The notes: generated by a model from the sequence alone, not told the origin. Numbered from the stretch's first letter, positions 13,725 through 64,000 are shown. The stretch is DNA of 64,000 nucleotides from a bacterium (GCA_025774935.1 JALGZK010000005.1:269841-333840); one strand, 5' to 3'. Numbers and translations are program-made.

Positions 13725-13764
13725 GAGGCATCTCGGGGCCGATCGAAGCGCTGCGAGAACGAGG

Positions 13765-13796
13765 AGAGGGGAACCGTCGCCTGACGACTCCCCTCT
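13765..13796. terminator. Bidirectional hairpin between convergent genes
   Basis: AGAGGGGA (13765-13772) pairs with TCCCCTCT (13789-13796), and inside it GTCG (13776-13779) pairs with CGAC (13785-13788) after a 3-base bulge. It lies between the plus-strand porin-like gene and the convergent acyltransferase and could end both. No U-tract is seen. Confidence 0.5.
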
Positions 13797-13833
13797 TCGC
13801 GTCCGGTGCGTGACCCACTCCTCGCGCTTGCCG

Positions 13834-14745: not shown

Positions 14746-14755
14746 GCTCACCTCT

Positions 14756-39235: not shown

Positions 39236-41032
39236 TCAGAACTCCCGGACCAGGCCGACGTGCAGACTCCCGTCGAGGACGCCGGCGCCTTCCCGGAGGC
39301 CGTAGTCAACGCCGATTATACCCAAGCGGGTTTCCGCCCGCAACCCGATTCCGTATCCTAACTTAATGTCCTCAGCGGGATTAGACCCGCTGCGCCTGAA
39401 CCAGGCCACGTCGACGAACGCGAGCGCGCGGGAGTAGCGCCCGAGGATGAACCGATACTCGACCTGCCCCATGGCGATCTGGTCGCCACGGATGAACTCC
39501 TCGGGATAGCCGCGGAGGCCCGATGCGCCACCGAGGACGAGAAGCTCATGGAACGGGATCGGATCCTCTGTGCTCACGATGCTCTCGAGTCTCGCCTCGA
39601 AGGCGACGACCTGCCTCGGGCGCGTACTGACGTACGTCGCTCCCCTCAGCTTCACCGTCGCCGAGGTGTACCGGTCTCCCGAGTCGCGCTCTTCCTTCGC
39701 GGCGTACTCCAGGAACCCGATCGCGGAGATTCCCCGCGTGGGGTTCGCAGGGACGTCGGCCGTGTCGTACTCCGTCGTGAGCGCCGTCCTGTAGCTCACG
39801 GACGTCGACTCATCGGCCGCTCCGGGGACGTAGCGCAACGCCCCGACCGACCACGTGACGCGCGTCGCGTCCCCCATGCGCGCCATGACGTATATGTCGC
39901 CCTCGGTCGTCGTGTAGATCGTGTCGCGGATCGACTGACTCCCCCAGAGGCCGACGTCGATCGGCGCGCCCAGCAGCCACGGCTCGCGGTACGAGAACGA
40001 GATGCGCGTCTCGAACGGATTCGGCCTGACCCACTCGGCGGTCGCCTGACGGCCCGTTCCGGCGATGTTCATGAGCGCGATGTCCAACCTGCCGGTGAGC
40101 TCCCCCTCGTCCTGACCCGGAACTGCGATGTACCCGAGCACGCCGGAGATCCTGTTCGACGTGCCCTCCTCGACCTCGATCCCGACCGTCGCCGCGCCCG
40201 TGGCCGGATCGACTGCGACGACCGGCTCGGACACGTGCCTGAAGAGCTCGAGCCGCTCGAGCCGGGGCCTCACTCCCTCGATCGTCGAGGCGCTGTAGAG
40301 CTCTCCCGTCTTGATACCGGACTCGCGCTCGATCACGTAGGGCTTCGTCACGTCATTCCCGCTGACCACGATGTCGGCGAACGTCGTCTCGATCCCCTCG
40401 TCGACGCTGATCCCGAGCCTGAGGCGTCCGTCCTCGCCGAGATTGGCGGAGGCTGGCGTCACGGTGGCAAAGGGGCGACCGCTGTCGGCGTACTCCCGGA
40501 CGAGGGTCTCGATGTCCCTCGCGAGGGCGTCCGCCGTGACGACGTCACCGGGCGAGAGGTCGACGTGCGCGGCGACCCGCTCGAGGGCGATCGACTCGAC
40601 TCCTTCGAGATCGACCGACCCCAGCCTGACCTCGGGCCCCTCGTCGACGGTGACGAGCACTGACACGCCGTCGTCGGCCTCGCTCCACTCGATCCCGACG
40701 CGTGCGAAGGGCCGCCCGACCTCGGCGAGACGCGACACGAGCGAGTCGGCGCCGGCTGAGAGCGCCACCTCGTCGAACGGGAGGTCCAGGTCCGGGACGA
40801 CGATCCCCGCGACCTCGCGGGAGCTCAGGCTCTCGTGGCCCTCGACCTCGACGCGGGCGACGGGTGGACGGACGTCCGGCGACGCGTCCTGCGAGGCGTC
40901 CGGTCCCGAGCCCGGTCCCGTGCCCTGGTCGGCCGCGAGCGCAGGCAGCGCGGGGAGCGCGACAGCGAGGACGAGCAGCGCCAGGGCGCGGCTCGCTGTC
41001 CTCCTGTTCCGCCTCTTGTTCCGCTCTGCCAT
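39236..41032 (-). CDS. Omp85-family outer-membrane assembly protein with three POTRA domains
   Basis: This 598-residue protein has a signal peptide (LVLAVALPALPALA, cleavage near 34), about three POTRA domains (45-118, 119-198, 199-275; GRPFARV and GRPFATV recur), and a barrel with the Omp85 signature GLRGYPEEF near residue 515 and a C-terminal Phe. Three POTRAs and this length suit TamA better than BamA, which has five. It lies 75 bases downstream of the SprA-like gene, at the end of the secretion locus, so it may insert that protein. ATG 41032 has GGGAG upstream. Confidence 0.85.
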   Translation of the reverse strand: MAERNKRRNRRTASRALALLVLAVALPALPALAADQGTGPGSGPDASQDASPDVRPPVARVEVEGHESLSSREVAGIVVPDLDLPFDEVALSAGADSLVSRLAEVGRPFARVGIEWSEADDGVSVLVTVDEGPEVRLGSVDLEGVESIALERVAAHVDLSPGDVVTADALARDIETLVREYADSGRPFATVTPASANLGEDGRLRLGISVDEGIETTFADIVVSGNDVTKPYVIERESGIKTGELYSASTIEGVRPRLERLELFRHVSEPVVAVDPATGAATVGIEVEEGTSNRISGVLGYIAVPGQDEGELTGRLDIALMNIAGTGRQATAEWVRPNPFETRISFSYREPWLLGAPIDVGLWGSQSIRDTIYTTTEGDIYVMARMGDATRVTWSVGALRYVPGAADESTSVSYRTALTTEYDTADVPANPTRGISAIGFLEYAAKEERDSGDRYTSATVKLRGATYVSTRPRQVVAFEARLESIVSTEDPIPFHELLVLGGASGLRGYPEEFIRGDQIAMGQVEYRFILGRYSRALAFVDVAWFRRSGSNPAEDIKLGYGIGLRAETRLGIIGVDYGLREGAGVLDGSLHVGLVREF

Positions 41033-41106
41033 CGTCTCCCGTCCTCTCCCGGGTCGCGCTCGCGCCCGGCAACGGCCAGCCCGCTGGAGCCTGCGGGAAG
41101 AACGCG

Positions 41107-44100
41107 CTAGAAGAACGCGTTGACCTTCATGTCGACGGTGTGCTGCGTCACGCTCTCGGGACGCAGCTCCCCTCCGTAGGTGAGCGATCCCGTGAGCCAT
41201 CGATTGAACCGGTAGTCCCCGATCACGCGCCACTCCGTCGTGACGCCGGGCTGCTTGCCTTCCGCCAGGTAGAGCGGGAGCGTCGACTCCGCCGTGTCGA
41301 TGTCGGTCCGCGTGAGGTTCGCGGTGAGCGTGCCCCGGCCCTTGAGCCGGTAGGTGACGCTCGGCGTGATCCTGGTCAGAGTGACGTCTATGTCCTCGAC
41401 TTCCTCCGTCTGACGGCCGATCGACGCGGTGAGCCTCGCGTCGATTCCGTCGGCCCGGCGCGTCGTCACCTCGCCCGTGAGAGCCTGCTCGTCGATTTCG
41501 TAGTTGTCACCGAGTCCGTCGGAGCGCCGGTCGCTCCGCCCCAGGTCCCCCTGGACCCTGTACGTGATGCCGCCCGAGCGCGAGAGCTTGACGTCGAGTG
41601 TCCCGTGCCTCTCCTTCCTCTCCTCCTTGGCATTCACGTAGGTCCGGTCGAGGTCGTCGCGCGTCGAGAACGTCGCCCTCACGGAGAGCGTGCCGTTCGG
41701 CCGGAGGTAGCGGAGGACGTGCCTCCCTGTGATCTCCCCCCGCACCGTGTCTTCGCCCTGGATCACGGCGGGGTCGAGCAGGTAGAGCGCGCGCTTGTCG
41801 GACGTCGCGGTGAGTTCCCGGAGCTTGATGTCGCTCTCGAACGCGAGCGCGGCCAGGAAGCGCTTCCACGCCGTCGGCTCCGGAAGCTCGCGGCGACCGG
41901 CGGCGCCGCTGAACTTGAGATCCCAGCGCATGCTCGTGGAGAGATCGATGACGGGAAGGTAGCGTCCCGTCGAGATGACCTGCGTGATCTCGACGCCGTC
42001 CTCCTCGAAGACGCGCTTCTCCTTCTCCTCGACCTCGCTCGTCGTGACGGAGTACCGGAACTCGCCCCTGAGCCCACCGTCGAACGACCGGTGGTTGAGC
42101 CGGACCGTGGCGAGATCGTAGCGGGTCCCGGGCTGCGTCAGCCCCTGCGCGATGTCGATCTTCTTGCGCAGGAGGCTCCCCTGGACCGTGAGCGGCTCCC
42201 ACGCGCCGAGACCGAGGCGGTACTCCTGCGTCATCGTCGTCGAGTACGCTCCCCACGCCTCTTCGAGGATCCTCTCGGTCTCCCGGTAGGCGAACCGGGC
42301 CGCCATGGTCAGCGTCCGCTCGCCCGTACGCTCAAGGGACACCTCGTAGTCGTCATACCTCTCGCCGGACGTGTCCTGGGTGCGCGAGTCGTGTGTGAAG
42401 GTGAACCCGGGTCGCCACGGGGTGGGGTTGTACTCGATCCCGGCCCGGTAGACCTCGAGGACGCGGCCCGAGGACGAGTCCGTCCCCGCCGGCGCGTAGG
42501 TGAGGTCGACGTAGCGGCCCGTCACCCACAGGCGGGATCTGTCGGTCGGGCTGCCCTCGACGTCGAACTCCGTCTTCCGCGAGTCGAGCGCGTCACCGCG
42601 CTCGAGGAGCGCGTACGAGAGACCCGCGTGACCGCCTCCCTCGAGCGAGACCGACGTCGACCCCTCGACGAGGAGCTCCTGTCTCGGAAGCTCCAGCCCC
42701 TGGAGCGCCCACCGCTCCTCGTATCCGACCTCGCGGAAGCGAGAGACGCCCTCGAAGTTCCCCCCGACACGCCTCGTGTTGAGGCCGAAGTCGAGCCGGG
42801 CCCGTCGCTCGCGGCCCCACCTGAGCGACGGCAGCGTGGCCGTCACGGTTCCCGCGTTGCCGAGGTTGTCGTCGTCGTCGAGGTCCGAGAGCGTGTTCAG
42901 GTCGAGGTCGGAGAGAGCCGCCTCGCCGACCACGAGGCCGTCGTCCCCGAACGCTGCCTGCCCTTCGAAGACGAGCAGGGAGTGATCGGCGGGCATCGGC
43001 AGCGTCCTCCCGAGCTCGTAGTCGCCGTCGCCCGGTCCGACGTAGACGTAGTAGCCACCCGCTACATCATAGTCGTAGTCGCCCTCGTCGCTCCTCTCGA
43101 AGTGGAGGTCGTAGTCTCCGGAGTCCGCGCCGGCGTACTCGAAGATCTCGGCGACGATCCTCAGGTAGTCGCCGTTTCCCATCCCGACCGAATCGACCCC
43201 GTCGTCTCGCGCCAGCTCAATGTCGTCACCGGCCTCCGCGAGGATGGCCCGGTCCTCGTCGGTCAGGAGCACCGACGACGCGCTCTCGTCGTCGACCTCC
43301 CGGAAGTAGCTCGCGCCGAGCCGGAACTGGTCGCGTGAGAATCCGGCGCCGCCCTGCGCGGCGTAGATGTCGACATCGAAGTCGTCGGTCGTGTATTCGT
43401 AGTCGATCGTGATCTCGCTCTCGAACGTGATCGGCCTGAGCTCGGTGAACTCGATCGTGCCGGCGCCGTAGTCGATCACATAGTGGTTGTCGGCGCCCCG
43501 CCTCAGCCTCTCGCCGTTCAGCCAGACGCGCTCGCTCCCCGGAACGACTGAGACTCCGACACTCCCCAGCCGGTCCGTCAGCAGATACGTACCCTGCTTC
43601 CCCTCGACACCCCGGAAGTTCATGCTCATGAACTCCCCCGCTGTGCGGGCGCCGGCCAGGAGGAGGTTCATCCGCTGAGTCCCCACCTCGACCATCGCCC
43701 CGGCGATGTCGCGCCGATAGCGCGCGAGGCTCCCGCCGTCGACGTCGAGGACGTAGTCGCCCATGAGAGCCGAGAACTGCTCGCCCTCGATCTGGATGAG
43801 GACCTCGTCGATGGCCCGGAGCTCCTCGGTGTCGCCCTCCGGCGTGAGCGGGGTGTTCTGGTCCGTCAGGTACGCGTTGACCGCGACGTCCCGCGTGATC
43901 TGACCGTTGATGTCCAGCCGGAGCGACTGCTCCAGGCTCGGATCCCGGTTCGGTCCCATCGTGATACCGAACGTCTTCGCTCCCCCGACCCGCAGGGAGC
44001 TTCCGGACTCGCTTCCGGACGGCGCGTCGGTGATCTCGACCATCTGCGCGCTCTCCTGGAACCCGGCGGGCAGTTCCTGGAGCGATTCGAGGACCGCGTG

Positions 44101-44520
44101 GCGGTAGACGTCCTCGATCGTCAGGGGAAGATAGCGGTAGGTCACGACGACCCGCGCTGTGTCGGGCCACGACGAGAGAAACGACATGACCGACGCTTCG
44201 GCGTCGAACACGTAGTCCTCTCCCCTCGCTTGGGCGACCGAGTCGACGACGACGGAGTCGGTCCCGGCCACGATCAGGGCGTCGGGGAGCGCGAACTCCC
44301 CGCGCGCCTCGCTTCCCTCGAGAACGATCTCCCGGGTCCCGCCCACGCGGACGAGGCTGCCGGACTCGGCCGCGGACGCGACGCCTGCGGCCGCGCAGAG
44401 CACGGCGGCGGACCCGAGCACGGCCGCAAGCGCCACAAGATGTGAGACCCCGCCACCTGGGCGGGGTCTGGCGCCGGACTGCCTGCCGGCGAGCCTATCT
44501 CTCACTCGGGCAGTCGTCAT
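41107..44520 (-). CDS. SprA-like large outer-membrane protein
   Basis: This 1137-residue exported protein begins with a long basic start and a hydrophobic signal (LVALAAVLGSAAVLCAAAGVASAA). Near residues 190-245 it has the SprA-like pattern GITMGPNRDPSLEQSLRL...TDQNTPLTPEGDTEELRAID..LIQIEG, known from SprA, the T9SS translocon of Bacteroidota. The C-terminal half is beta-strand-rich and probably forms a barrel ending in VNAFF. It is about half as long as Bacteroidota SprA, so it is a distant or shortened relative. ATG 44520 overlaps the NHL gene by 26 bases; its ribosome site is weak. In context it is the candidate translocation pore. Confidence 0.7.
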   Translation of the reverse strand: MTTARVRDRLAGRQSGARPRPGGGVSHLVALAAVLGSAAVLCAAAGVASAAESGSLVRVGGTREIVLEGSEARGEFALPDALIVAGTDSVVVDSVAQARGEDYVFDAEASVMSFLSSWPDTARVVVTYRYLPLTIEDVYRHAVLESLQELPAGFQESAQMVEITDAPSGSESGSSLRVGGAKTFGITMGPNRDPSLEQSLRLDINGQITRDVAVNAYLTDQNTPLTPEGDTEELRAIDEVLIQIEGEQFSALMGDYVLDVDGGSLARYRRDIAGAMVEVGTQRMNLLLAGARTAGEFMSMNFRGVEGKQGTYLLTDRLGSVGVSVVPGSERVWLNGERLRRGADNHYVIDYGAGTIEFTELRPITFESEITIDYEYTTDDFDVDIYAAQGGAGFSRDQFRLGASYFREVDDESASSVLLTDEDRAILAEAGDDIELARDDGVDSVGMGNGDYLRIVAEIFEYAGADSGDYDLHFERSDEGDYDYDVAGGYYVYVGPGDGDYELGRTLPMPADHSLLVFEGQAAFGDDGLVVGEAALSDLDLNTLSDLDDDDNLGNAGTVTATLPSLRWGRERRARLDFGLNTRRVGGNFEGVSRFREVGYEERWALQGLELPRQELLVEGSTSVSLEGGGHAGLSYALLERGDALDSRKTEFDVEGSPTDRSRLWVTGRYVDLTYAPAGTDSSSGRVLEVYRAGIEYNPTPWRPGFTFTHDSRTQDTSGERYDDYEVSLERTGERTLTMAARFAYRETERILEEAWGAYSTTMTQEYRLGLGAWEPLTVQGSLLRKKIDIAQGLTQPGTRYDLATVRLNHRSFDGGLRGEFRYSVTTSEVEEKEKRVFEEDGVEITQVISTGRYLPVIDLSTSMRWDLKFSGAAGRRELPEPTAWKRFLAALAFESDIKLRELTATSDKRALYLLDPAVIQGEDTVRGEITGRHVLRYLRPNGTLSVRATFSTRDDLDRTYVNAKEERKERHGTLDVKLSRSGGITYRVQGDLGRSDRRSDGLGDNYEIDEQALTGEVTTRRADGIDARLTASIGRQTEEVEDIDVTLTRITPSVTYRLKGRGTLTANLTRTDIDTAESTLPLYLAEGKQPGVTTEWRVIGDYRFNRWLTGSLTYGGELRPESVTQHTVDMKVNAFF

Positions 44521-45505
44521 ACTCGATCTCGATAACGAGCACGCGCGGGGCCTCACGATCGAGGACGTAGAGCGTGTCGGTACGTTCGTCGATGGCGAGC
44601 CCCGAGGGCCACACGAGCCCCAGCGCCCGGCCGTCGAGCGATGCGGTGGGCGTCTCCCCTCCCGGAGGGTACGCCAGGATCCTGCCGTGGCGGACGTCGG
44701 CGACGAGGAGGTTGCCGTGCCTGTCGTACAGCACCTCCTCCGTCGCGAGCGTGTCGGCTTCCGACACGGCGTAGAGGTGCGTCCCGAACTCGTCGAACAC
44801 TTCGACCGTCGCGCGGGAGGCGTCCGCGACGGCGATCTCGCGCGAGCGTCCGGATGCCACGTCTCGCGGCTCGGCCAGCCCGCCCGTGCCCAGCCCGAAC
44901 TCGCCCACGGGCTCGAGCAGCTCCGCGAACTGAGTGATCGTGAGGACGGTCTGGTAGTCGGCGTCGACGATCAGGATCTCGCCCGTCCTCCGGACCTCGA
45001 CTCCGACGGGGCTTCCCGACCACGTCTCGAGCCTGCCGAGGTCGATGAAGTTGCCGTTCACGTCGAAGCGCTGGATCCTCCGGTTGTTCGTGTCGAGCAC
45101 GTAGATGAAGAAGCCGGGGACGATCGAGAGGTCGCTGGGGGAGTCGAACTGGTCGGGCTCCCAGCCGAAGCCGCCGAACTCCCGCACGAGCCTCCCCTGG
45201 CTCGTGACGACCATGATTCGGTGGTTGCCCGTGTCGGCTATGACGAGGTCGCCCCGGTGGTCGACGCCGATCGCCTCGGGGGCCGTGAGCCCCCAGAGCT
45301 CCGCCCTCGGCACGTCACGGACGTGCTCGAGGCCGACGACGCAGGGCTCCCCCGAACGCGCGAGGGCGTCTGTCGAGGAGGTCTGCGCCCGGCTGCCCGC
45401 GTGGCCGCCGAGGATAAGCGCCACGGCCACTACGGCGGCGAATGCCGCCACGGACGTGCGCCTCCCACGAATCCAACTGGGTTTCCTGGTGATGCTGATC
45501 TCCAT
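44495..45505 (-). CDS. Exported NHL-repeat beta-propeller protein
   Basis: This 336-residue protein has a signal segment (VAAFAAVVAVALILGGHAGSRA) and about five to six NHL-type blades (APEAIGVDHRGDLVIADTGNHRIMVV, PSDLSIVPGFFIYVLDTNNRRIQRF, SPVGVEVRRTGEILIVD). Such propellers usually bind proteins or sugars outside the cell. It overlaps the SprA-like gene by 26 bases, so the two are made together; it could be an accessory or quality-control part of the secretion locus. ATG 45505 is chosen for a compact signal peptide; GTG 45535 is the alternative. Confidence 0.75.
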   Translation of the reverse strand: MEISITRKPSWIRGRRTSVAAFAAVVAVALILGGHAGSRAQTSSTDALARSGEPCVVGLEHVRDVPRAELWGLTAPEAIGVDHRGDLVIADTGNHRIMVVTSQGRLVREFGGFGWEPDQFDSPSDLSIVPGFFIYVLDTNNRRIQRFDVNGNFIDLGRLETWSGSPVGVEVRRTGEILIVDADYQTVLTITQFAELLEPVGEFGLGTGGLAEPRDVASGRSREIAVADASRATVEVFDEFGTHLYAVSEADTLATEEVLYDRHGNLLVADVRHGRILAYPPGGETPTASLDGRALGLVWPSGLAIDERTDTLYVLDREAPRVLVIEIEYDDCPSER

Positions 45506-45545
45506 CGGTGGGGCTTTCCCGAGAGGGGATCTCACGCCTCGGGGG

Positions 45546-46388
45546 CTAGAAGGAGATCTCGAGCGTCGCCCGGGCCCCGACGGTTCCCTCGGAGAACTCC
45601 GGGACGACCGAGAGACGCGCGTCCGGCCCGCCGGCGGCCCTCTCGTTGTACCGCCTGGCCATCCAGGCGGCGTCGATGGAACTGACGGCGCGGTTGAGAA
45701 CCGCCAGCCCTGTCATGTAGAAGGCGTTCCGTTCGGACTGCTGTTCGAGGCGCCTGAGCTCGCGGTAGTGGTCGAACCTCACCTCGCTCTGCCACTCCCA
45801 CGCCAGCTCGTCGAAGTATCCGTTCGCGGCGAGATACGCGCGCTGCGCGTCGAGGTCGCCCGGGAAGAGGCTCCTGGCCTCGGCGCGGATGTCCTGGTTG
45901 TAGCTCGCGTCGCCCTCGCTCCTGATGAAGTCCGCGATGTCCTGGTAGTAGCTCGAGCTCATGTTGTCGCCGACACCCGCGAAGATCGACGCGTACTCCT
46001 CGTAGTCGTCCCTACGCATGTTGCCCTGGACCGTGTAAGAGGCGTAGCCGAGCCAGATCGCGGCCTCGACGCCCAGGAAGACCTTCGCCTTCGTCGTGTG
46101 GCCGGTGTAGAGCTGGCCCCAGCCGGGAAGGACGGCCGACATCAGGAATGCGAGCATGGGGTTCTTCGTGTCGTCCGGAGGGGACGCGATCGACGCGTCC
46201 GCCTCCGATCCCTCGGCCGCCGCCTGCGAGAGCGGCGCGGACTCGTCCAGTGAGAGTTCGAGCGACTCGAGAGACAGGCGGACCGAGCCCTCGTATTCAC
46301 CCGTCAGCGCGAGCGCCGGGACCGGCGCCGCCGCGAGGAGCGCCGCCAGTGCCGCAATCGCGATGAGTGTCTTCGTCCCTTCAGTCAT
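45546..46388 (-). CDS. DUF5683-like exported membrane protein, paralog B
   Basis: This 280-residue protein has a signal peptide (AALAALLAAAPVPALA) and a two-helix membrane block (LMSAVLPGWGQLYTG and VFLGVEAAIWLGYASY) like DUF5683, a family common in T9SS-bearing bacteria. The rest is acidic and helical, ending with ARATLEISF, a beta-like end. Its start ATG overlaps the previous stop as TAATG, so it is coupled to paralog A, which has the same GWGQLYTG/GTGQLVQG layout. Function unknown. Confidence 0.75.
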   Translation of the reverse strand: MTEGTKTLIAIAALAALLAAAPVPALALTGEYEGSVRLSLESLELSLDESAPLSQAAAEGSEADASIASPPDDTKNPMLAFLMSAVLPGWGQLYTGHTTKAKVFLGVEAAIWLGYASYTVQGNMRRDDYEEYASIFAGVGDNMSSSYYQDIADFIRSEGDASYNQDIRAEARSLFPGDLDAQRAYLAANGYFDELAWEWQSEVRFDHYRELRRLEQQSERNAFYMTGLAVLNRAVSSIDAAWMARRYNERAAGGPDARLSVVPEFSEGTVGARATLEISF

Positions 46389-47233
46389 TAGAACCTCGCG
46401 ACGAGCGCGCCGCGCACACCGCCTCCGCCCCGCGCGACGTCGAACTGGATGCCGAGGTCGCCTCCCGAGAGCCCCTCCTCAGGCGCGTTCCCCTTCGCGA
46501 TCATGAACGCGTCGATGCCGCTCACCACGTGGTTCAGGAGAACGGCCATGAGGAAGTATCGTGCCTGCTCGAGATGCAGGTTGCTCGTCTGACGCATGTC
46601 CCAGTAGTCGTTCCGCACGGCGATGTCGTTGTCGCTGTACTCGTCCCACTCGATGTCCCACTCGTCGCCGTCGTCGTGCCACCAGCGCCAGTAGGTGTCG
46701 TACTTCCCGATGTCCTCGTAGAACTCCGTCGGGTCCTCTTCGGGGTTCGGGAGCGGACGGCACTCGTACCCGCAGTCGGAGCAGCCCTCGCAGTTCGCGA
46801 TGTACCAGGCCTGCCACCCCTCGTAGTCCCAGGTCATGTCCGCGAAGTCCTTGTAGTCCTCCCGCTCCTGGAGACCCTTCTCGTTCAGGACGTAAAACCC
46901 TCCCCAGAACGCGAGCTCCGCGAGGAGGTAGAGGTAGCCGCGCTTCTCGCCCTGCACGAGCTGTCCCGTGCCGGGAATGAGGAGCGACATACCGCCCATC
47001 GCCGCGGGGTTGTGCGCTTTCCCGGCGGAGGCGTCCCCGCTGCCGGCCGTCTCGACCAGCTCCTCCTCGGAGTCGAGCGAGGTGATGAGAACCAGGTCCG
47101 CGGCGGCGACCTCGAGGTCACGGTCGCTCCAGGGCCCGCCCGCGAGAGACGCGCGAGCCATGCCGGAAGCCCCGGCGACCACGAGCGTCGCTGCTGCGAG
47201 AACCAGAGCGGCTGTCTTCCACGGTCTCGACAT
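46388..47233 (-). CDS. DUF5683-like exported membrane protein, paralog A, with a Cys cluster
   Basis: This 281-residue protein has a signal peptide (ALVLAAATLVVAGASGMARA), the membrane block MSLLIPGTGQLVQGEKRGYLYLLAELAFWGGFYV, and a second hydrophobic stretch near 225-245. Between them is the motif NCEGCSDCGYEC (Cys-x2-Cys-x2-Cys-x3-Cys), a likely metal site or set of disulfides that paralog B lacks. It ends with VARF. It is coupled to paralog B by TAATG and follows the M6 protease gene by 44 bases. Function unknown. Confidence 0.75.
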   Translation of the reverse strand: MSRPWKTAALVLAAATLVVAGASGMARASLAGGPWSDRDLEVAAADLVLITSLDSEEELVETAGSGDASAGKAHNPAAMGGMSLLIPGTGQLVQGEKRGYLYLLAELAFWGGFYVLNEKGLQEREDYKDFADMTWDYEGWQAWYIANCEGCSDCGYECRPLPNPEEDPTEFYEDIGKYDTYWRWWHDDGDEWDIEWDEYSDNDIAVRNDYWDMRQTSNLHLEQARYFLMAVLLNHVVSGIDAFMIAKGNAPEEGLSGGDLGIQFDVARGGGGVRGALVARF

Positions 47234-47277
47234 GCCCTTGCCGTCTCCCTCGATCCGCCCTCGCGGCGACGCGAGCG

Positions 47278-50200
47278 TCAGCGTATCACCGCGGCCTTCA
47301 TGACCTTGACCTCGGACCGCTCGCTCCCTGCCTTGCCCGAGCCGCCTCCGTACACCGGCACGCTCGCCTCGACCCGCACCAGGTAGAGCCCGCTCGCGAC
47401 GCCGGAGGTCTCCCAGACGATCTCGTTGACAGTCGGAACTCCGTCGATGTCGAACCGGCGCACTTCCTGCCCAGAGACGTCCATGATGCGGACGTCAAGG
47501 TCCGCATGCTCCTCGAGGTAGACCCGGACCGTGAGATCCGACATCTTCGCCGGGTTCGGATAGCAGTACGTGCGGTCGTCGACGAGGAGCCCCTCGGTCT
47601 CGTCGGGTTCCGCCGGCAGGAGCGAGTCGGGATACGCCCCCGTCCCGGCGGCCGAGCCGGCCTCGGTCGGCCAGATGATGTTCGCGTCCTTGTGTGCGTA
47701 GGGCATCCGGTAGAAGAGCACGCGGCCGGCGTCTCCGGCGACGAGAACGTCGGTCTCGCCGTCGTCGTCCGCGTCGCCGACCCACGGCGAGCCGAGACTC
47801 GGATCCGACGACACCGGCCATCCGGGAATCGACTCGCCGGTCACGGCTCCCCATCCGAAGAGGTTCCCGCCGGGCCCGCCGACGATGACGTCGAGCTCGC
47901 CGTCATCGTCGATGTCGCCGAGGATCGGCGGACAGCCGTTCGTCGAGAGGCTGTCGCCCGGGTCGAGGATGAGTGGCCAGTTCTCGGCCCGCGTTCCGTT
48001 CGCGCGAAGTCCCACGACCGACCTCGAGCCTGCCGAGAGCGCGAGTTCTAGATACCCGTCCGCGTCGAGATCGGCCAGGGCGCCCCTCGCGAGTACCCCC
48101 CTCTCGAGGCGCACGGGCCAGCCTTCGAGCTCGCGGCCCGACCGGTCCCAGACGTGAACCTCCCCGTTCGACCCGACTCCCACGACCTCGGGCGCGCCGT
48201 CGGCCGCGCGATCGATGTCGCCCACGAGCACCCCGGCGGTCCCGTCGACCCACGACGGAACGGTCACCGGCCATCCGGAGACGGACGATCCGTCGGAGTC
48301 GAGAGCGGCCACCCAACCCCTGTTCGTGGTGGAGAGGACGACCTCGTCCAGGAGGTCGCCGTCCAGGTCGCCTGCAGCGAGCGTCACGTCGTTCAGGATG
48401 AGATGACCGAACGAGTACGGCGACGATCCGACCTGGCCCCCGGTGTGGTCGACGAGTGTCAGATACCCGCCCTGCGACGCCGCGGCGATCTCGAGCCTCG
48501 GCCCTCCGTCGAAGTCGGAGGCGACCGGCGGCGAGCTCGCCGCACCGCCGATGTCCACGGGGAAGCCGCTCGAGTGGAGGTCCGCCGATCCGTCGCCGTT
48601 GAGATCGACGTGATCCCACACGAAGAGCTCGCCCCCGGCAGACGACGCGATCACCTCGAGGTCGCCGTTCGCGTCGAGGTCTTCGAGTGCGGGCGTGTAG
48701 GAGAGCCCGCCTGAGGCCTCGGCGAAGAAACCGAAGGGAACCGAGAACGGCAGGACCGGCGTGCCGTCGGCGTGCCAGGCGTAGATGTTCCCGCTCTCGG
48801 CGCCGACCACGATCTCGTCGAGTCCGTCGCCGTCGAGGTCCGCAACCCTCGGAGAGACTGGACCGATGCGCTCGCCGATGTCGATCGGCCAGCCGTCCTT
48901 CCAGCGGTCGAAGCCGACCTTCATCGTCATCACGGTGTCCGGGTCGGAGATGCGCGTCACCGAGACGTACGTTTTCCCGCCGAAGTTGTTGTCGGTCGAT
49001 GGGTACGTGTCCCAGGAGAACGAGTCGTTGTTCGCCGCGTAGAACGGGTCCTCGGCGCTCCCGGTCCAGTAGAAGCTCCCGATGTTCCCGAGGTCCATGA
49101 TGCCGTCGGCTTCCTCGACCGCGACGCCCCGGTGGTACCGGTCGTAGTTGACCGTGTCGTACGGCATGAGCCCTGGGATGACGCGCGTGTCGTCGATATG
49201 CCAGATCATGAGACCCGGTCCCGGCAGGAGGAAGTCGTACTCGTTGTTCACCGGACAGATCTCCTCGCTGCAGTCGGGGTCGACGGGACCGAGAACGACG
49301 CCGCGCTCCTGCTCGATGATGACCGTGCTGTCCTTGTTGAGGTCGTCGAACCTGTTCTCGACGAGGAAGTACTCGCGGCTCGTGAGGGGGATCTTGAGGA
49401 GCTGGTTCCCTCCCCCCCTGAGCACCGCAGCTCTGACCTCGACGTCCTCCTGGTCCTCGAGGATCACGGGCGGATCGAGCCACCCCATGTACTCCTTCGA
49501 CCACGAGCAGGGCGCCGCGGGGATGAGGCCGAACGCGTAGCCCCACGGCGTGTTCATCCCTATGCGGCCCCCGGAGTCCATGATGCTCCAGTAGCCGACG
49601 GCCGGGAAGAAGTTGAACGTGTTGTAGAGGTCGGGAAGCCCCAGGATGTGGCCGACCTCGTGGGCGAGCGTCCCGTTCAGGACGATCTGGAGGCCGTCCT
49701 GGGAGGAGGTCTCCGGCATGATCGCAGACTCCCACACCTCGCACGTGCCGTCGTTGACGAGGATCGGCTCGCCGAGCGAGATGTGTGCCGACGGGATGTC
49801 AAACGGCGAGTCGAGGTAGACGTCGCTCTGCCAGTCGGCCCCGGCGTGGAAGATGATGTACCCGTCGTACTCGCAGAAGTCGAGCGTGTCGGTCGTGTCG
49901 GCCGCGGCGAACGCGTCCCTGACAAACGCCTCCACCTGGCTGACGTACCAGACCTGCTCCTCGGAGTAGTCGTGGTAGTAGCCCATCTCGTGTGGCACGA
50001 CGTACGCGCCGTCGCTGTCGGCGGGAGCTACCGTCCAATCGATCTCGAGGTTCCCGTACGACGCGGAGTAGTAGTAGTTGTGGAGGGCCGTCATGTGGTA
50101 CTCGAAGTAGTCCTTGTCGTGCGGCGTGCCGTCGAAGCTGGCCTCGTCCCACTCCGAGTAGTCGAAGGTCCCGTCACCGGTGCTCCTGGGGTCGTCGTCG

Positions 50201-50481
50201 GGCTGGAACTCGACCCTGAGCGCGAGGAGGCGGATGATGTCGCGGCCGCCTTCGACCTCGCCCCTCGCGCGCGCCCTCCTCGCGGCCTTCTCGAGGGCGC
50301 TCACCCTCGGAAGGTCGTCGACGAAGTGCTTGGTGGAGACCCTCTGCGCGTCCTCGAGCCGGGGCGAGTCCTTCGTGCACTCGAGGCGGGAACCTGCGAG
50401 CGCTGCCCCCCAACCCGAGGCTATGATGAACGCTGCCGGGACCACGAAGAGCCATCGGCCCCGGCGGAGTGTGCGTGTCAT
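47278..50481 (-). CDS. Secreted M6-family metalloprotease with FG-GAP repeats and T9SS-type sorting domain
   Basis: This 1067-residue protein has a signal peptide (LFVVPAAFIIASGWGAALAG), an M6 (immune inhibitor A-like) protease domain with the zinc motif HEVGH at 274-278 and downstream GLPDLYN, then FG-GAP/VCBS-type repeats from about 535 to 930 (DLDGDGLDEIVVGAESGNIYAW, DLDADGYLELALSAGS), and a C-terminal sorting domain from about 975 (CYPNPAKMSDLTVRVYLEE...DVSGQEVRRF...LYLVRVEA). The last is the FlgD-like/T9SS type A domain. It is probably cargo of the neighbouring secretion system. ATG 50481 has GAGGAC upstream. Confidence 0.88.
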   Translation of the reverse strand: MTRTLRRGRWLFVVPAAFIIASGWGAALAGSRLECTKDSPRLEDAQRVSTKHFVDDLPRVSALEKAARRARARGEVEGGRDIIRLLALRVEFQPDDDPRSTGDGTFDYSEWDEASFDGTPHDKDYFEYHMTALHNYYYSASYGNLEIDWTVAPADSDGAYVVPHEMGYYHDYSEEQVWYVSQVEAFVRDAFAAADTTDTLDFCEYDGYIIFHAGADWQSDVYLDSPFDIPSAHISLGEPILVNDGTCEVWESAIMPETSSQDGLQIVLNGTLAHEVGHILGLPDLYNTFNFFPAVGYWSIMDSGGRIGMNTPWGYAFGLIPAAPCSWSKEYMGWLDPPVILEDQEDVEVRAAVLRGGGNQLLKIPLTSREYFLVENRFDDLNKDSTVIIEQERGVVLGPVDPDCSEEICPVNNEYDFLLPGPGLMIWHIDDTRVIPGLMPYDTVNYDRYHRGVAVEEADGIMDLGNIGSFYWTGSAEDPFYAANNDSFSWDTYPSTDNNFGGKTYVSVTRISDPDTVMTMKVGFDRWKDGWPIDIGERIGPVSPRVADLDGDGLDEIVVGAESGNIYAWHADGTPVLPFSVPFGFFAEASGGLSYTPALEDLDANGDLEVIASSAGGELFVWDHVDLNGDGSADLHSSGFPVDIGGAASSPPVASDFDGGPRLEIAAASQGGYLTLVDHTGGQVGSSPYSFGHLILNDVTLAAGDLDGDLLDEVVLSTTNRGWVAALDSDGSSVSGWPVTVPSWVDGTAGVLVGDIDRAADGAPEVVGVGSNGEVHVWDRSGRELEGWPVRLERGVLARGALADLDADGYLELALSAGSRSVVGLRANGTRAENWPLILDPGDSLSTNGCPPILGDIDDDGELDVIVGGPGGNLFGWGAVTGESIPGWPVSSDPSLGSPWVGDADDDGETDVLVAGDAGRVLFYRMPYAHKDANIIWPTEAGSAAGTGAYPDSLLPAEPDETEGLLVDDRTYCYPNPAKMSDLTVRVYLEEHADLDVRIMDVSGQEVRRFDIDGVPTVNEIVWETSGVASGLYLVRVEASVPVYGGGSGKAGSERSEVKVMKAAVIR

Positions 50482-50500
50482 GACGTCCTCACCACCCCAA

Positions 50501-50520
50501 CGGCCTCATCCTCGAGGCCG
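50501..50520 (-). repeat. Second hairpin in the porV-M6 spacer
   Basis: CGGCCTC (50501-50507) pairs perfectly with GAGGCCG (50514-50520) around a 6-base loop. It lies 19 bases before the M6 start and follows the 50529-50555 hairpin on the minus-strand message. No U-tract follows. Confidence 0.5.
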
Positions 50521-50528
50521 GAGTTCAC

Positions 50529-50555
50529 CGCGGCGCGGGCGCCCCCCGCGCCGCG
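50529..50555 (-). terminator. Strong hairpin directly after porV
   Basis: An 11-base perfect stem (50529-50539 with 50545-50555) and 5-base loop lies 6 bases after the PorV stop. There is no U-tract on the minus strand, so it may protect the porV message 3' end or lower readthrough into the M6 gene rather than fully stop it. Confidence 0.5.
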
Positions 50556-50561
50556 TCAACG

Positions 50562-51548
50562 CTAGAACGTCGCGGTCAGCGAGAACCGGAAGGGCCGCTT
50601 GAGCCCCTCGGCCTGCGGGACGTTCGCGAGATCGAACGCCCAGTTCTTGTACTTGAGACCCATGCCGTACGCGAGGCCCTTGACCTCTCCGTCCTTGTCG
50701 TAGACGTAGCCGGCGCGGAGCGCCAGGAGGTTCGCGTAGACGTACTCGGCGCCGGCGTTCAGGATCACGCCGGTGGCGACGTCCGCGATGTCCTCCACGA
50801 TGACCAGCGACTTGTTGTACTCGCCGGACACGAGGAGGCTGTTGGTCTCGTCCCTCATGATGATGTACGTGGCCCCGAGCTTGAGGTTCCTCGGAAGCGG
50901 ATCCGACTGCTCCTCGTCGATGTAGGCGATCTTCGGGCCGACGTGGAGGAGCGCGGCGCCGAGCCTCAGCTTGTCCTCCATGGTCTTCCAGAGAACGCCG
51001 AGGTCGACCGCGAACGTGGACCCCGAGCCCTTCTCCTGGTCCTGCGTGAACTGCGCGGGAGCCAGATCGACGTAGACGAACTTGAGGTTGAGGCCGACCG
51101 CCAGGTTCTCCCCGATGGCGGTCCCGTACGCGATCGACGGGATCACTTCGTAGGAGTTGAACTCGCCGATCGGCTCCGGGCTGTCGGGATCGGTCGCGAT
51201 CTGCGTTCCGTAGGTCAGGTAGATCACCGACGCTCCGATCGTCCCGAGCCCCTCCACCTTCTGAGCGTAGGCGATGTACTCGTAGTACACGTCGTCCCAA
51301 TCCGGGACGAGCTGCGTGTGCATGAGCGTGAAGTTGTACTTCCCCTCGATGAACCCGAGTCCGCCCGCGTTCCACGAGATCGCGCTGGCGTCGTCCGCGA
51401 GAGCGACGAAGCTGTCGCCCATTCCCGCGGGACGCGCGCCCGGCTGGATGTAGAGCGACTGCGCTCCCCCGATCGAGACCTGAGCACCCGCGGCCGATGC
51501 GAGCGCCGCCGTGATGAGGACTACCACCGCGATTCTGATCTTGAACAT
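50562..51548 (-). CDS. porV: PorV/PorQ-family outer-membrane protein
   Basis: This 328-residue protein has a signal peptide (VVVLITAALASAAGA) and the PorV-type start QPGARPAGMGDSFVALADDASAISWNAGGLGF, followed by a FadL/OmpP1-like barrel (GASVIYLTYGTQ, FAVDLGVLWKTMEDKLRLGAALLHVGP) and an aromatic C-terminus (SLTATF). PorV carries T9SS substrates from the translocon to the PorU sortase in Bacteroidota. Its gene follows the PorU-like gene by 34 bases, the same order as porU-porV in Porphyromonas. ATG 51548 follows AAGGAGAG. Confidence 0.85.
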   Translation of the reverse strand: MFKIRIAVVVLITAALASAAGAQVSIGGAQSLYIQPGARPAGMGDSFVALADDASAISWNAGGLGFIEGKYNFTLMHTQLVPDWDDVYYEYIAYAQKVEGLGTIGASVIYLTYGTQIATDPDSPEPIGEFNSYEVIPSIAYGTAIGENLAVGLNLKFVYVDLAPAQFTQDQEKGSGSTFAVDLGVLWKTMEDKLRLGAALLHVGPKIAYIDEEQSDPLPRNLKLGATYIIMRDETNSLLVSGEYNKSLVIVEDIADVATGVILNAGAEYVYANLLALRAGYVYDKDGEVKGLAYGMGLKYKNWAFDLANVPQAEGLKRPFRFSLTATF

Positions 51549-51582
51549 CTGTCGTGACTCTCCTTTCGGTCCCGGGATCGGG

Positions 51583-54500
51583 CTACCTCATGACGACCGC
51601 TCTGCCGATCGCCTCGGCCTTGTCCCCGCTGTACTCCTCGGAGGTGGCCTGGATTCTATAGAGATACACACCGTTAGCGAGCTCGTCGCCCTGCTGGTCG
51701 AGGCCGTTCCAGTAGACCTCGTTGGCCCCGGCCGTCGCAGGGATGTCGGACATCGCCCTGATGAGACGTCCTCCGACCGTGAAGACTTCGATTCTCACCG
51801 TGGCCGCCGCCGGCAGCTGGAAGAGGATCGTCGTGCCCTCCTCGCCGCCCGAGAACGGGTTCGGGTGGTTCGCCACGGCCCTGATCTTGAAATCGGCGGC
51901 CGAGACGACCTCGATCCAGACGTCCTCGGTCGACCGGTTGCCCACGTTGTCGGTGGCTTCCACGATGAGCGTGTGCCCGCCCAGCCCGAGCGAGGGCAGG
52001 GCGTAATCGACCGAGCCAGTCCGGTAGCTCCCGAGGTCGTACAGGAAGGCGCCGGTCAGGCTCGTCGTGTCGGCCGAGCCGGCGACCCTGAGGACGATCC
52101 CGTCCTCGAGGTCGCGGTCGACGAGGTTCACGCCGTGGTCGTCGGTTAGCGAGATGGTGAACTCGGATCCCGGAAGAACCGACGTGCCTCCTCCCTCGAA
52201 GCCGACGTCGATGACGGGCCCCGTCGCGTCGGTCACCGCCACGCTGTCCGAGAGCGCCACGTCCTCGAGGGAGAACGAACCGTCGGAGTCGTCGCTATAG
52301 AAGTACCCGCGGATCCTGGCGTAAGGCCCCTCCTCCGCGAGCGCCGACACGACGAACTCAGCGTCGAACTCGCCGTTCGTCACGACGACCGGTCCGTCGA
52401 ACATCGTCTTGCCCGGAAGCGAGTAGTCGACGTGACGCGGCGGGAAGATCGGGTTCCACTGGTCGTACCCGCTCGTGTCCGCCGAGTCGGTCACCGTGAT
52501 CAGCGCGACGCCGCCCTCGCCCTCGGTCGGGCCTGCGTTCGAGCCCTCGATGGTGATCGTGTCCATCCTCTTCATGGGCTCGAGCCCATCGTCGCCGATC
52601 GTCCCTCCCCCGGAGGGAGAGGCCATGGTAAGCGCCGGGTCGCCTATGAGGGCGAACCGGGTGTTGTTGACCCACTGAGAGTGGCCGGTCCCGGTCGATA
52701 TGAAGGCCGCCTGGAACGCCGAGCCCACGTCGAGCACCGCCGTCGGCATCACCCGCTGGTCGTCGAACGTGTGCGAGAAGAACGCGCGGTTCAGGATCGA
52801 GTTCTGTCCCGCCCCGGAGTCCCTCGTGCTCCCGATCGAGGCGATGGCGCCGCCGATCGACGACTTCACGAGGGTCTCCCCCAGCGAGTCGCCGGTCTTC
52901 ATGTCGAACTTGTTGAGCCTGCAGGACGCCGCGAAGAAGAGCGGGAGCCCGTCGAGGTTGTGGAGCCTCGGGACGTCGTCGAGCAGGAAGACGTTCTCGT
53001 GGGCCATCAGAAGCTCGTTCCCGTGGCCCGTGTAGTTCGCGACGAGAAGACCCTCGTTCCACGCGTCGACGATGTCGCGCCTCGCGCCCGACTTGTTGCC
53101 CGCCGCGTCGTGCTCGTACTCCATCAGGTAGATCTTCTTCCGATCGATCGGCCACGGCAGAATGTCGGTCGAGATCTGCTCGGCCTGCTCGGTGTGGTAG
53201 TACTCGGGGTTCGAGGTGTCGTCCCACCCCTTGAGCTCGTCGTCGCCGACCAGCATCACCGTGTTCTTCCACGTGTCGAGGACCGACTCGGTCTCGTACC
53301 GCTCGACCTTGTCGATCATCGTGGACAGCTCGCTCGTCGACCGCGCGGTCATCCGCCCGAGCGCCATCGCCGGGTCGTAGTCGGACACGCTTTCGAAGCC
53401 CACGAACCACTGGTCGGTGGGCCAGTACCCGCCGCCGGTGTAGACCGTCGGGACGTAGCTCTCGATGCTCGAACTCTGGTAGCGCCTGTAGTCCGACGAG
53501 GCGTCGCCGATGAGGAGGACGTGCGTCGGCGGCAGGTCCGCGTTGTCCCAGGCGTACTTCAGGAAGTCCCTGATCGCAGTCGGATCGAAGATGCCCCAGG
53601 AGAACTCGTCGTAGACGTCCGACGTTCTTACGAGCTGGACGTCGTGGCCGCCTCCCGCCGAGCTCTCGCGGTAGTTCTTGAGCCGGACGGCCTCGCCGTG
53701 GAAACCGTCGTAGACGACGATGATGTAGTCGGCGCCGGACGGGGTGCGGAGGTCCGCGAACGTGCTGACCTCGAGCTCCGGCGAGATGTATCCGTCCGCG
53801 GAAGCCGCGGCGTACGAGGCAGTGTCGGCAACCTCGTCCTGGAAGACGGCCCGGCCCGCCTCGATCGAGACCCCCGGCACCGTCCTGAGCGTCAGCTTGT
53901 CGATGATCTTGTAGACGCTCACGTCGTCCCCGGCGAAGCCGCCGATCGAGTGCTCGATCGTGCCCGTGCGGGCGGAGCTGCCGAAGAGGATGTGGTCGTC
54001 GACCGCCCAGAGCTCCCTCCAGAACTCGAGCTCGAACCAGTCGATCAGGATCGCGTCCTCGCGGTGACCCTGGTCCTCCCTCGGGACCACGACCTTGTAC
54101 GTGTTGAAGCCCTCGCGCATCGGGAGCCCGCCGGCCTCGAAGGTGTAGCGTGAGAATCCGTCCCACTCGCCGATGTGCGCTTCGGTGTCGTTCAGCGAGT
54201 AGATGACGTAGTGGTCCGGGTTGACCGAGAAGACCGACGAGTTGCCGTCCGTTCGGGCGCGGAGAACGCCGGTGGAATCGGTGAGGACGTGGTCGAGTGT
54301 CTCGTGGAAGTACCGCGTCTCCGGGACCCCCACGAGCCTCATCTCGGACCAGTACCAGTTGTCTCCCCTGCCCTGGTACTCGTAGATGTTGCGCTCGAAG
54401 TGCTCCCTGGCGACGTAGTTCTCCACGACGAGCGGGTCCGGTTCGTCCTGGAGATCGTCGGCCGCCATCCTCAGGGGCTCGCCCGCGAACCCCGAGGGCG

Positions 54501-55584
54501 TTCCGTCGTACTCCCAGGTCAACCAGTATGCCGAGTCGTTCGCGAACGGGTTCTCGTAGTAGGGCTCGTCCGGGTTCTCGACCTCGAGCTCGGACGACCA
54601 CCCATCGATCGCGAGCGCGTAGAAGATGACCCGGTCGCCGTCGTCGAACGTCCCGTCCCCTCCGTCGTCCACTCGGATCGTACACTCGTCCATCCAGTCG
54701 GGGCGGGGCTCGGTGACGTTGTCGGGAACAGGAAGGCCCCCGCCCGAGAAGACCCTGAACGTGCCAGGATCGATGTCGTCGGGGCCGAGGCCGGCGTGCT
54801 GGAGGTCCTCGTGGGTGACCGAGTGCATCCCCTGCTCCGTCACCGTCATCTTCACCCAGTTCTGCGAGGTCGTGAAGTAGTCGTCCGGTCGGCTCAGCCG
54901 GCGGGCCACGCGGCCCCTGCGCCATTGCTTTCCGTCCTCGTAGTTCAGAAGGACAGAGCGCAGGAGGCTCTCCCTTCGCGGCAGGTCGGCCCGCTGAGGT
55001 CCGTTGTCGCGGACGCCCAGGAAAGAGAGCGAGACCTCGATCGACTCGTGTGAGAACAGCGTGCCGCTTCCGGGATCGACCTGGCAGGGATAGAACTCGA
55101 CCGCGACAGTCCGCTGCGTGGTCGTCCATCGCGGATCGGTGACGGCCGCCGCGCGGTCGGGCCAGCGGCCCTCCGTCGAGTACACATCGCCCTCGACGAA
55201 CGCGTACGAGCTCACTTCCCCCTCGGCGCCCGGAACGATCGAAGCGGCCGGCAGGACCGGGAGCGCGCGCTTCCGCGCCGTCCCGCCCGTGCCGACGGTC
55301 GAGACGACCCGCTCGCAGTCGGGGACCGCGACGACGACGCGCACCACTGGGAGATCCGGGAATCCGGGGACGGAGAGCCGGTCAGCTCCGGACATCGAGA
55401 GCTCGACGTACTGCCGCCCGTCGAGCTCGACCGACCTCGTGACGAGGTCGCCCGGCACGTACCTGAGCACCATGCCGCTCGAACTCGAGGAGACGATCTC
55501 GACCGGTGAGCGCCCCGCGGCCGCCGACGCGAGAGCAGCGATGAGCGCGAGGGCAGCGAGGGTCCGGAGGACGGGCCGTGCCAT
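51583..55584 (-). CDS. PorU-like C25 (gingipain-family) peptidase with C-terminal sorting domain
   Basis: This 1333-residue protein has a signal peptide (cleavage near 24), a PorU-like N-terminal region (KMTVTEQGMHSVTHEDLQHAGL, then DGGDGTFDDGDRVIFYA), a C25 caspase-like domain with catalytic His about 854 (YTGHGNE) and Cys about 888 (FAASCRLNKFDM), Ig-like domains, and a FlgD-like sorting domain at about 1235-1333 (NHPNPFSGGEEGT...NGVYLYRIQA). PorU is the T9SS sortase that cuts sorting domains and attaches cargo to the surface. Next to porV, this is the best candidate for that role; a secreted C25 protease is the alternative. ATG 55584 follows AGGGGGAA. Confidence 0.85.
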   Translation of the reverse strand: MARPVLRTLAALALIAALASAAAGRSPVEIVSSSSSGMVLRYVPGDLVTRSVELDGRQYVELSMSGADRLSVPGFPDLPVVRVVVAVPDCERVVSTVGTGGTARKRALPVLPAASIVPGAEGEVSSYAFVEGDVYSTEGRWPDRAAAVTDPRWTTTQRTVAVEFYPCQVDPGSGTLFSHESIEVSLSFLGVRDNGPQRADLPRRESLLRSVLLNYEDGKQWRRGRVARRLSRPDDYFTTSQNWVKMTVTEQGMHSVTHEDLQHAGLGPDDIDPGTFRVFSGGGLPVPDNVTEPRPDWMDECTIRVDDGGDGTFDDGDRVIFYALAIDGWSSELEVENPDEPYYENPFANDSAYWLTWEYDGTPSGFAGEPLRMAADDLQDEPDPLVVENYVAREHFERNIYEYQGRGDNWYWSEMRLVGVPETRYFHETLDHVLTDSTGVLRARTDGNSSVFSVNPDHYVIYSLNDTEAHIGEWDGFSRYTFEAGGLPMREGFNTYKVVVPREDQGHREDAILIDWFELEFWRELWAVDDHILFGSSARTGTIEHSIGGFAGDDVSVYKIIDKLTLRTVPGVSIEAGRAVFQDEVADTASYAAASADGYISPELEVSTFADLRTPSGADYIIVVYDGFHGEAVRLKNYRESSAGGGHDVQLVRTSDVYDEFSWGIFDPTAIRDFLKYAWDNADLPPTHVLLIGDASSDYRRYQSSSIESYVPTVYTGGGYWPTDQWFVGFESVSDYDPAMALGRMTARSTSELSTMIDKVERYETESVLDTWKNTVMLVGDDELKGWDDTSNPEYYHTEQAEQISTDILPWPIDRKKIYLMEYEHDAAGNKSGARRDIVDAWNEGLLVANYTGHGNELLMAHENVFLLDDVPRLHNLDGLPLFFAASCRLNKFDMKTGDSLGETLVKSSIGGAIASIGSTRDSGAGQNSILNRAFFSHTFDDQRVMPTAVLDVGSAFQAAFISTGTGHSQWVNNTRFALIGDPALTMASPSGGGTIGDDGLEPMKRMDTITIEGSNAGPTEGEGGVALITVTDSADTSGYDQWNPIFPPRHVDYSLPGKTMFDGPVVVTNGEFDAEFVVSALAEEGPYARIRGYFYSDDSDGSFSLEDVALSDSVAVTDATGPVIDVGFEGGGTSVLPGSEFTISLTDDHGVNLVDRDLEDGIVLRVAGSADTTSLTGAFLYDLGSYRTGSVDYALPSLGLGGHTLIVEATDNVGNRSTEDVWIEVVSAADFKIRAVANHPNPFSGGEEGTTILFQLPAAATVRIEVFTVGGRLIRAMSDIPATAGANEVYWNGLDQQGDELANGVYLYRIQATSEEYSGDKAEAIGRAVVMR

Positions 55585-63334: not shown

Positions 63335-63340
63335 GTACGT

Positions 63341-63455
63341 TCCGGCAGCGTCCTACTCTCCCACAAGGTCTCCCAAGCAGTACCATCGGCGCTGGAGGGC
63401 TTAACTACTGTGTTCGAAATGGAAACAGGTGTGACCCCTCCGCCATTGCCACCGA
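63341..63455 (-). rRNA. rrf: 5S ribosomal RNA
   Basis: The minus strand shows the 5S pattern: GGTGGCAATGGCGGAGGGG at the 5' end, ACACCTGTTTCCATTTCGAAC in the middle, the AGTTAAGCCCTCCAGCGCC loop and GGAGAGTAGGACGCTGCC at the 3' end. The ends are accurate to a few bases. About 175 bases separate it from the 23S end, with no tRNA between. Confidence 0.95.
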
Positions 63456-63629
63456 AACAAACATCGGGACAGCACGAAGCGTCCCCGAGTTTGGCACCTG
63501 GCTGGGGCAGGCCGAGGCCAACCCCACGTCAGTCGCTCGCGATCGCATCGCAGACTACGAAAGCCAGGTGCGCATTCCTGAGACAACTCATAGATTCGGA
63601 CGGGTACAAGCGTCTGTCTGTATTCTAAT

Positions 63630-64000
<371 letters not shown>

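What the first reader, a model, noticed from the sequence alone, without database searches (positions are those of the whole stretch)
39236..55584. A type IX secretion-like locus, probably outside Bacteroidota
One strand carries a PorU-like C25 peptidase, PorV, an M6 protease with a T9SS-type sorting domain, two DUF5683-like proteins, an NHL propeller, a SprA-like protein and a three-POTRA Omp85 protein, all closely spaced. Established: PorU, PorV and SprA are the sortase, shuttle and translocon of T9SS. Seen: the porU-porV order and sorting domains. Inference: this is a compact T9SS-like system of a different FCB lineage, with a half-size SprA and extra parts. The motor genes (porK, L, M, N) are not in the window.
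Basis: partly seen in the sequence, partly recalled or inferred. Interest (0 to 1): 0.85.

Follow-up and report, generated by a model that had tools for sequence, protein, structure and literature searches.

The report
Seep bacteria's motorless-looking type IX secretion
An uncultured seep-bacterium phylum carries a genuine type IX protein-secretion system, with its sortase and shuttle genes in this stretch, its full-size export pore elsewhere in the genome and dozens of tagged cargo proteins, but no detectable copy of the motor genes that power the system in Bacteroidota.

Summary
The organism belongs to Ca. Effluviviacota (GTDB VGIX01), not Bacteroidota. The sortase passes NCBI's PorU equivalog cut-off, with its His/Cys pair invariant in 16 loci. 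PorV passes its subfamily cut-off. The genome holds 76 sorting-domain matches (44 over the curated cut-off), 26 C25-peptidase matches and about 8 PorV-family proteins over cut-off. So this is a real T9SS outside Bacteroidota.

One central inference fails: the 1149-aa "half-size SprA" is not the translocon. A full-length SprA (2137 aa, 529 bits, cut-off 200) sits on another contig beside a glutaminyl cyclase, and 17 of 20 phylum genomes pass that cut-off. The window protein is a separate large outer-membrane barrel; its significant sequence link to SprA is one small domain that also scores against phage tail families.

GldM, GldN and GldK are not found above cut-off in 20 genomes, nor GldL in the window's own, although SprA, PorU and PorV models score strongly there. 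No positive control for the motor models could be run. The only pmf motors found are Tol and ExbB-ExbD-TonB.

Gene order is conserved phylum-wide, but so are the flanking housekeeping genes, so synteny does not tie the extra genes to T9SS.

The parts
51583..55584 (-). porU: C25 sortase (1333 aa) with gingipain-type propeptide (24-218), catalytic domain and C-terminal FlgD-like Ig domain; His854/Cys888
   Evidence: NF033707 530.7 bits (cut-off 420), PF01364 293 bits, PF08126 62.7 bits, PF13860 34.4 bits; aligns to P. gingivalis PorU 6za2 over 616-1315; His/Cys motif invariant in 16 loci
50562..51548 (-). porV: shuttle of the PorV/PorQ family (328 aa)
   Evidence: NF033709 231 bits (cut-off 90), PF19572 72 bits (cut-off 27); matches F. 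johnsoniae PorV 6h3i_F, E 5e-22
47278..50481 (-). M6 metalloprotease with FG-GAP repeats and C-terminal sorting domain (1067 aa), a probable T9SS cargo
   Evidence: PF05547, PF13517 and PF18962 over cut-off; TIGR04183 27.2 bits, cut-off 23; HExxHxxG intact in the window and all relatives inspected
46388..47233 (-). First DUF5683-like exported protein (281 aa)
   Evidence: No family match of its own; matches the second DUF5683-like protein's region by tblastn
45546..46388 (-). Second DUF5683-like exported protein (280 aa); overlaps the preceding gene by one base
   Evidence: PF18935 27.2 bits, cut-off 26.7
44495..45535 (-). NHL-repeat beta-propeller, exported; start may lie near 45430
   Evidence: PF01436 71.6 bits, four repeats; gene caller
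41107..44556 (-).
   Evidence: TIGR04189 20.7 bits only; 19 of 20 phylum genomes; AF2 about 30 long strands, pLDDT 62
39236..41233 (-). Omp85 protein with three POTRA domains; start probably 41032
   Evidence: PF07244 three stretches, 81.5 bits; PF01103 58.8 bits; BamA equivalog 119.8 bits, cut-off 297

Best explanation
The window carries the surface-processing module (sortase PorU plus shuttle PorV) and a linked block of envelope proteins of a true type IX secretion system of Ca. Effluviviacota. Cargo proteins cross the inner membrane by Sec, are exported by a full-length SprA encoded on another contig (G000:C1), are received by PorV-family shuttles and lose their C-terminal domain to PorU (these steps are inferred from homology; the presence of the parts is shown). 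The 1149-aa barrel and the Omp85 protein are accessory outer-membrane proteins, not the export pore. How export is powered is open: no GldL, GldM, GldN or true GldK homologue is detectable, so the system uses either a strongly diverged or different motor (the genome's ExbB-ExbD-TonB set is the nearest candidate, pure inference) or no dedicated motor.
For: PorU equivalog cut-off passed, alignment to solved PorU, His/Cys pair invariant. PorV subfamily cut-off passed; 15 PorV-family matches in the genome. Full-length SprA, 529 bits against 200, Pfam SprA_N, similar to F. johnsoniae SprA 6h3i, 17 of 20 phylum genomes over cut-off. 76 sorting-domain matches; in the ten inspected the domain is the C-terminal end of the protein. 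Motor and ring negatives: GldM 0/20 with two models, GldN 0/20, GldK none over cut-off, GldL none in own genome. Only Tol and ExbBD-TonB motors found.
Against: No positive control for the GldLMN models could be run: the only Bacteroidota record reached holds porU, porV and sprA but gave no gldM match. Motor proteins may have diverged beyond detection. The genomes are incomplete MAGs. SprE/PorW, PorT, PorZ, PorQ and Plug were not searched. Synteny extends to unrelated housekeeping genes, so a T9SS role of the accessory genes is not shown.
Confidence: 0.65

Rival explanations
1. An ordinary T9SS with a complete PorKLMN energy chain whose motor genes are too diverged for the HMMs or lie in assembly gaps.
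For: The GldM and GldN models rang in no genome searched here, so their reach is untested. PorU is only 25.5% identical to the Parabacteroides protein, so small motor proteins could fall below detection. Weak GldK-type FGE-domain matches exist in 5 of 20 genomes.
Against: SprA, PorU, PorV and sorting-domain models score strongly in the same genomes. PF12081 and TIGR03523 give nothing even at E<=0.1 across 20 genomes, 13 of them at least 90% complete with at most 5% contamination. GldK-type matches are patchy, absent from the window's genome and far below cut-off.
Confidence: 0.35
2. One reading: a compact second T9SS in which the 1149-aa barrel is a half-size SprA that acts as the export pore for the neighbouring PorU and PorV.
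For: The barrel gene is always beside porU-porV. All 13 aligned members match the SprA model weakly, best E 6.8e-12. SprA 6h3j_A aligns over 499 residues at rmsd 8.4, the longest alignment with the lowest rmsd in the list.
Against: A full-length SprA is present in the same genome and most relatives. The significant similarity is one small domain that also scores against phage tail families. Many unrelated barrels score equal or higher Z. Housekeeping neighbours keep the same order too.
Confidence: 0.12
3. The five genes after the M6 protease are a general outer-membrane biogenesis block that only happens to follow porU-porV and has no part in type IX secretion.
For: The whole region from dnaE to the helicase gene is syntenic across the phylum. 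Omp85 proteins usually serve barrel assembly. No DUF5683, NHL or Omp85 gene is among the T9SS components named in the papers read.
Against: The block consists only of exported proteins (by eye) between cytoplasmic genes, is tightly spaced, and starts with two T9SS components and a sorting-domain protein.
Confidence: 0.4

Closest known systems
Type IX secretion system of Bacteroidota (Porphyromonas gingivalis Por, Flavobacterium johnsoniae Gld/Spr)
   Same: Full-length SprA/Sov, PorU sortase with catalytic His/Cys, PorV-family shuttles, porU-porV gene order (as in Parabacteroides), dozens of proteins with C-terminal sorting domains
   Different: No detectable GldL, GldM, GldN or true GldK; PorU carries a gingipain-type propeptide domain; porUV lies beside a barrel, an Omp85 protein, two DUF5683-like proteins and an NHL protein; sprA lies beside a glutaminyl cyclase gene
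T9SS suggested in other FCB phyla (Fibrobacterota, Cloacimonadota, Ignavibacteriota, Gemmatimonadota; PMC11285876, PMC6851124)
   Same: Sorting-domain proteins outside Bacteroidota
   Different: The Fibrobacter paper argues from sorting domains alone; here translocon, sortase and shuttle are identified over curated cut-offs or by subfamily, and motor and ring genes were searched and not found
SprA/Sov (TIGR04189), for the 1149-aa window barrel
   Same: Small DY-motif domain twice; predicted large outer-membrane barrel; weak colinear N-terminal stretch
   Different: About half the length, far below the equivalog cut-off, coexists with a full-length SprA
NCBIfam NF052323 T9SS-dependent M6-like inactivated metalloprotease, for the window M6 protein
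   Same: 377 bits over the N-terminal half; sorting domain at the C-terminus
   Different: Below the 600-bit cut-off; HExxHxxG motif intact, FG-GAP repeats

Membership tests
Type IX secretion system | SprA/Sov translocon | tested here: met
   Full-length SprA at G000:C1, 529 bits against 200; not in the window
Type IX secretion system | PorU sortase | tested here: met
   530.7 bits against 420; catalytic pair invariant
Type IX secretion system | PorV-type shuttle | tested here: met
   PorV/PorQ subfamily 231 bits against 90; PF19572 over cut-off; the stricter PorV equivalog is missed, 167 against 250
Type IX secretion system | Multiple cargo proteins with C-terminal sorting domain | tested here: met
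   76 matches, 44 flagged over cut-off; C-terminal position checked for ten
Type IX secretion system | Proton-driven motor GldL/GldM (PorL/PorM) | tested here: inconclusive
   GldM 0/20 genomes with two models, GldL none in own genome; no positive control
Type IX secretion system | Ring/track GldK/GldN (PorK/PorN) | tested here: inconclusive
   GldN 0/20; GldK only weak matches below cut-off in 5/20, none in own genome; no positive control
Type IX secretion system | SprE/PorW, PorT, PorZ, PorQ, Plug | not tested
Type IX secretion system | Actual secretion and cleavage of the C-terminal domain | not testable with these tools
   Needs cells or proteomics
SprA/Sov (for the 1149-aa window protein) | Passes the SprA equivalog cut-off, about 2000-2500 aa | tested here: not met
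   20.7 bits against 200; 1149 aa
SprA/Sov (for the 1149-aa window protein) | SprA-type giant barrel fold | tested here: inconclusive
   AF2 pLDDT 62; SprA Z 13.1, rmsd 8.4, 499 aligned, among many barrels at Z 13-17; N-terminal part alone pLDDT 44
BamA (for the Omp85 protein) | Passes the BamA equivalog cut-off | tested here: not met
   119.8 bits against 297.15; three POTRA stretches

The most novel reading that the evidence does not exclude
A type IX secretion system that works without the PorKLMN energy chain: in Ca. Effluviviacota, export by SprA, PorV and PorU is driven by another motor (for example ExbB-ExbD-TonB) or by cargo folding alone, which would suggest that the proton-driven chain is a separate addition known from Bacteroidota.
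Probability: 0.35. Interest if true: 0.78.

Novelty: new variant of a known kind. Interest (0 to 1): 0.6.

Why it matters
Reviews call T9SS specific to Bacteroidota or the FCB group (PMC7463736, PMC12421860), and current models power it by the GldKLMN chain (PMC12635249). A phylum with a clear translocon, sortase, shuttles and dozens of cargos but no recognisable motor would separate the export machine from its motor and make the need for that motor, and its origin, testable. It would also suggest how abundant seep bacteria place many proteases on or outside their cells.

Tried and rejected
Half-size SprA as translocon: rejected after a full-length SprA was found. SprA homology of the window barrel by profile comparison: only the small DY-motif domain is significant. 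PDB sequence search with its profile: nothing at E<=1. PHROGs: nothing. Structure of the N-terminal 470 residues alone: pLDDT 44, not usable, not searched further. In the VIA list SprA does not stand out by Z. Positive control for the motor model on a 388-kb Parabacteroides record: no gldM match. Literature searches found no description of a motorless T9SS in the library held; most subscription journals are not in it. Missing barrel in one genome (G001) is explained by a contig that ends just after porV. My first regular expression for the M6 motif seemed to show losses in some relatives; a second look showed HExxHxxG in all inspected.

Full report
Observation. The minus strand of 39236-55584 encodes eight genes in the order porU, porV, M6 protease, two DUF5683-like proteins, NHL propeller, 1149-aa barrel, Omp85 protein. 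By inspection all eight begin with a Sec signal peptide, and several end in the aromatic residue typical of outer-membrane barrels (no predictor was run). The block lies between cytoplasmic housekeeping genes: CBS-domain protein, EIIA, accA and dnaE upstream; ligA, thiC and a helicase downstream. Spacing is tight, and the two DUF5683-like genes overlap by one base.

Organism. The genome is 3.24 Mb and 96% complete; the window is 67.7% G+C. Relatives returned by the collection scan include 'Candidatus Effluviviaceae Genus IV'; others are labelled Ca. Eisenbacteria or simply bacterium. The held phylum has 20 genomes in one family. I read this as Ca. Effluviviacota (GTDB VGIX01), described from cold seeps and vents, distinct from but sharing a root with Latescibacterota and Eisenbacteria (PMC11323493). 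The main text of that paper does not mention T9SS.

T9SS core. PorU passes the NCBIfam equivalog cut-off (530.7 against 420) and aligns to P. gingivalis PorU 6za2 through the catalytic and C-terminal regions. His854 and Cys888 are invariant in 16 loci. The window protein also has a gingipain-type propeptide domain. PorV passes the PorV/PorQ subfamily cut-off and matches F. johnsoniae PorV. The genome has 15 PorV-family matches, seven over cut-off alone and one more as two pieces of one frame, 26 C25 matches and 76 sorting-domain matches, 44 flagged over cut-off. In the ten inspected the domain is the last of the protein; nine matches end within 10 residues of the stop, the window's M6 protein 28.

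The translocon is elsewhere. The SprA model finds a full-length protein (2137 aa) at G000:C1:152539-158358, 529 bits against a cut-off of 200, with Pfam SprA_N and similarity to solved SprA. Seventeen of 20 phylum genomes pass the cut-off. An M28-type glutaminyl cyclase gene is its immediate neighbour in the window's genome and in the eight others checked. Glutaminyl cyclisation and T9SS were noted to co-occur in Bacteroidetes, although the authors found no link to secretion itself (PMC5837995).

The window's 1149-aa protein. It is found in 19 of 20 genomes; in the remaining one the porU contig ends just after porV. All 13 aligned members match the SprA model weakly, but in the window protein the matching stretch is a small 'DY' domain that occurs twice, and members of the family also score against phage tail families. 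A weak colinear stretch (E 0.011) relates its N-terminal third to SprA 302-413. AlphaFold2 gives mean pLDDT 62 with about 30 long strands in the C-terminal 620 residues. VIA-align lists SprA 6h3j_A at Z 13.1, rmsd 8.4, 499 aligned residues; many TonB receptors, ushers and porins score Z 13-17 with shorter or looser alignments. It is a large outer-membrane barrel, perhaps a remote SprA relative, and not the SprA orthologue.

Motor. GldM was sought with two models in 20 genomes, GldN and GldK in 20, and GldL in the window's genome. Nothing passed cut-off; weak FGE-domain matches to GldK occur in five genomes and not in this one. The same genomes ring strongly for SprA and C25/PorU, and the window's for PorV. 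The tool warned that GldM (TIGR03517) and GldN rang nowhere, and the one Bacteroidota record I could reach carries porU, porV and sprA but gave no gldM match. The absence is therefore suggestive, not proven. The genome has two MotA/TolQ/ExbB proteins: one in a Tol-like locus, one in an ExbB-ExbD-ExbD-TonB cluster about 5 kb from two PorV-family genes. That proximity is a lead only.

Mechanism. Shown by sequence: translocon, sortase, shuttles and cargo tags. Inferred from homology: Sec export, SprA translocation, PorV hand-over, PorU cleavage. Unknown: energy source and surface anchor. The accessory genes could assist barrel or surface assembly, but their conserved position is weak evidence, because unrelated neighbours keep the same order across the phylum.

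Verdict. T9SS beyond Bacteroidota has been suggested before (PMC11285876, PMC6851124), so the system is at most a new variant of a known kind.

Noticed in passing
L062:17410-18294 (G000:C1, downstream of sprA): An M28-type glutaminyl cyclase gene directly follows full-length sprA in this genome and in the eight others checked, placing the enzyme behind the Bacteroidetes 'Q-rule' next to a T9SS gene in another phylum.
   Followed up: partly
L033, L034, L035: Proteins of about 1000 aa or more in two related genomes carry a distant version of the window barrel's core behind a large N-terminal surface region.
   Followed up: no
L077:5578-8782 and 12908-14906 (G000:C22): ExbB, two ExbD and TonB-like genes lie about 5 kb from two PorV-family genes.
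   Followed up: partly
L094:10065-13887 (G001:C125): porU of a same-genus genome is split by a frame change near 13318-13388, possibly an assembly error; the contig ends just after porV.
   Followed up: no
L079:7556-9193: A 545-aa protein whose end matches CHU_C and FlgD_ig over cut-off and Por_Secre_tail below it, next to a PorV-family gene; the sorting-domain classes overlap in this phylum.
   Followed up: no
window 63340-64000: 5S rRNA and the 3' end of a 23S rRNA on the minus strand at the window edge.
   Followed up: no
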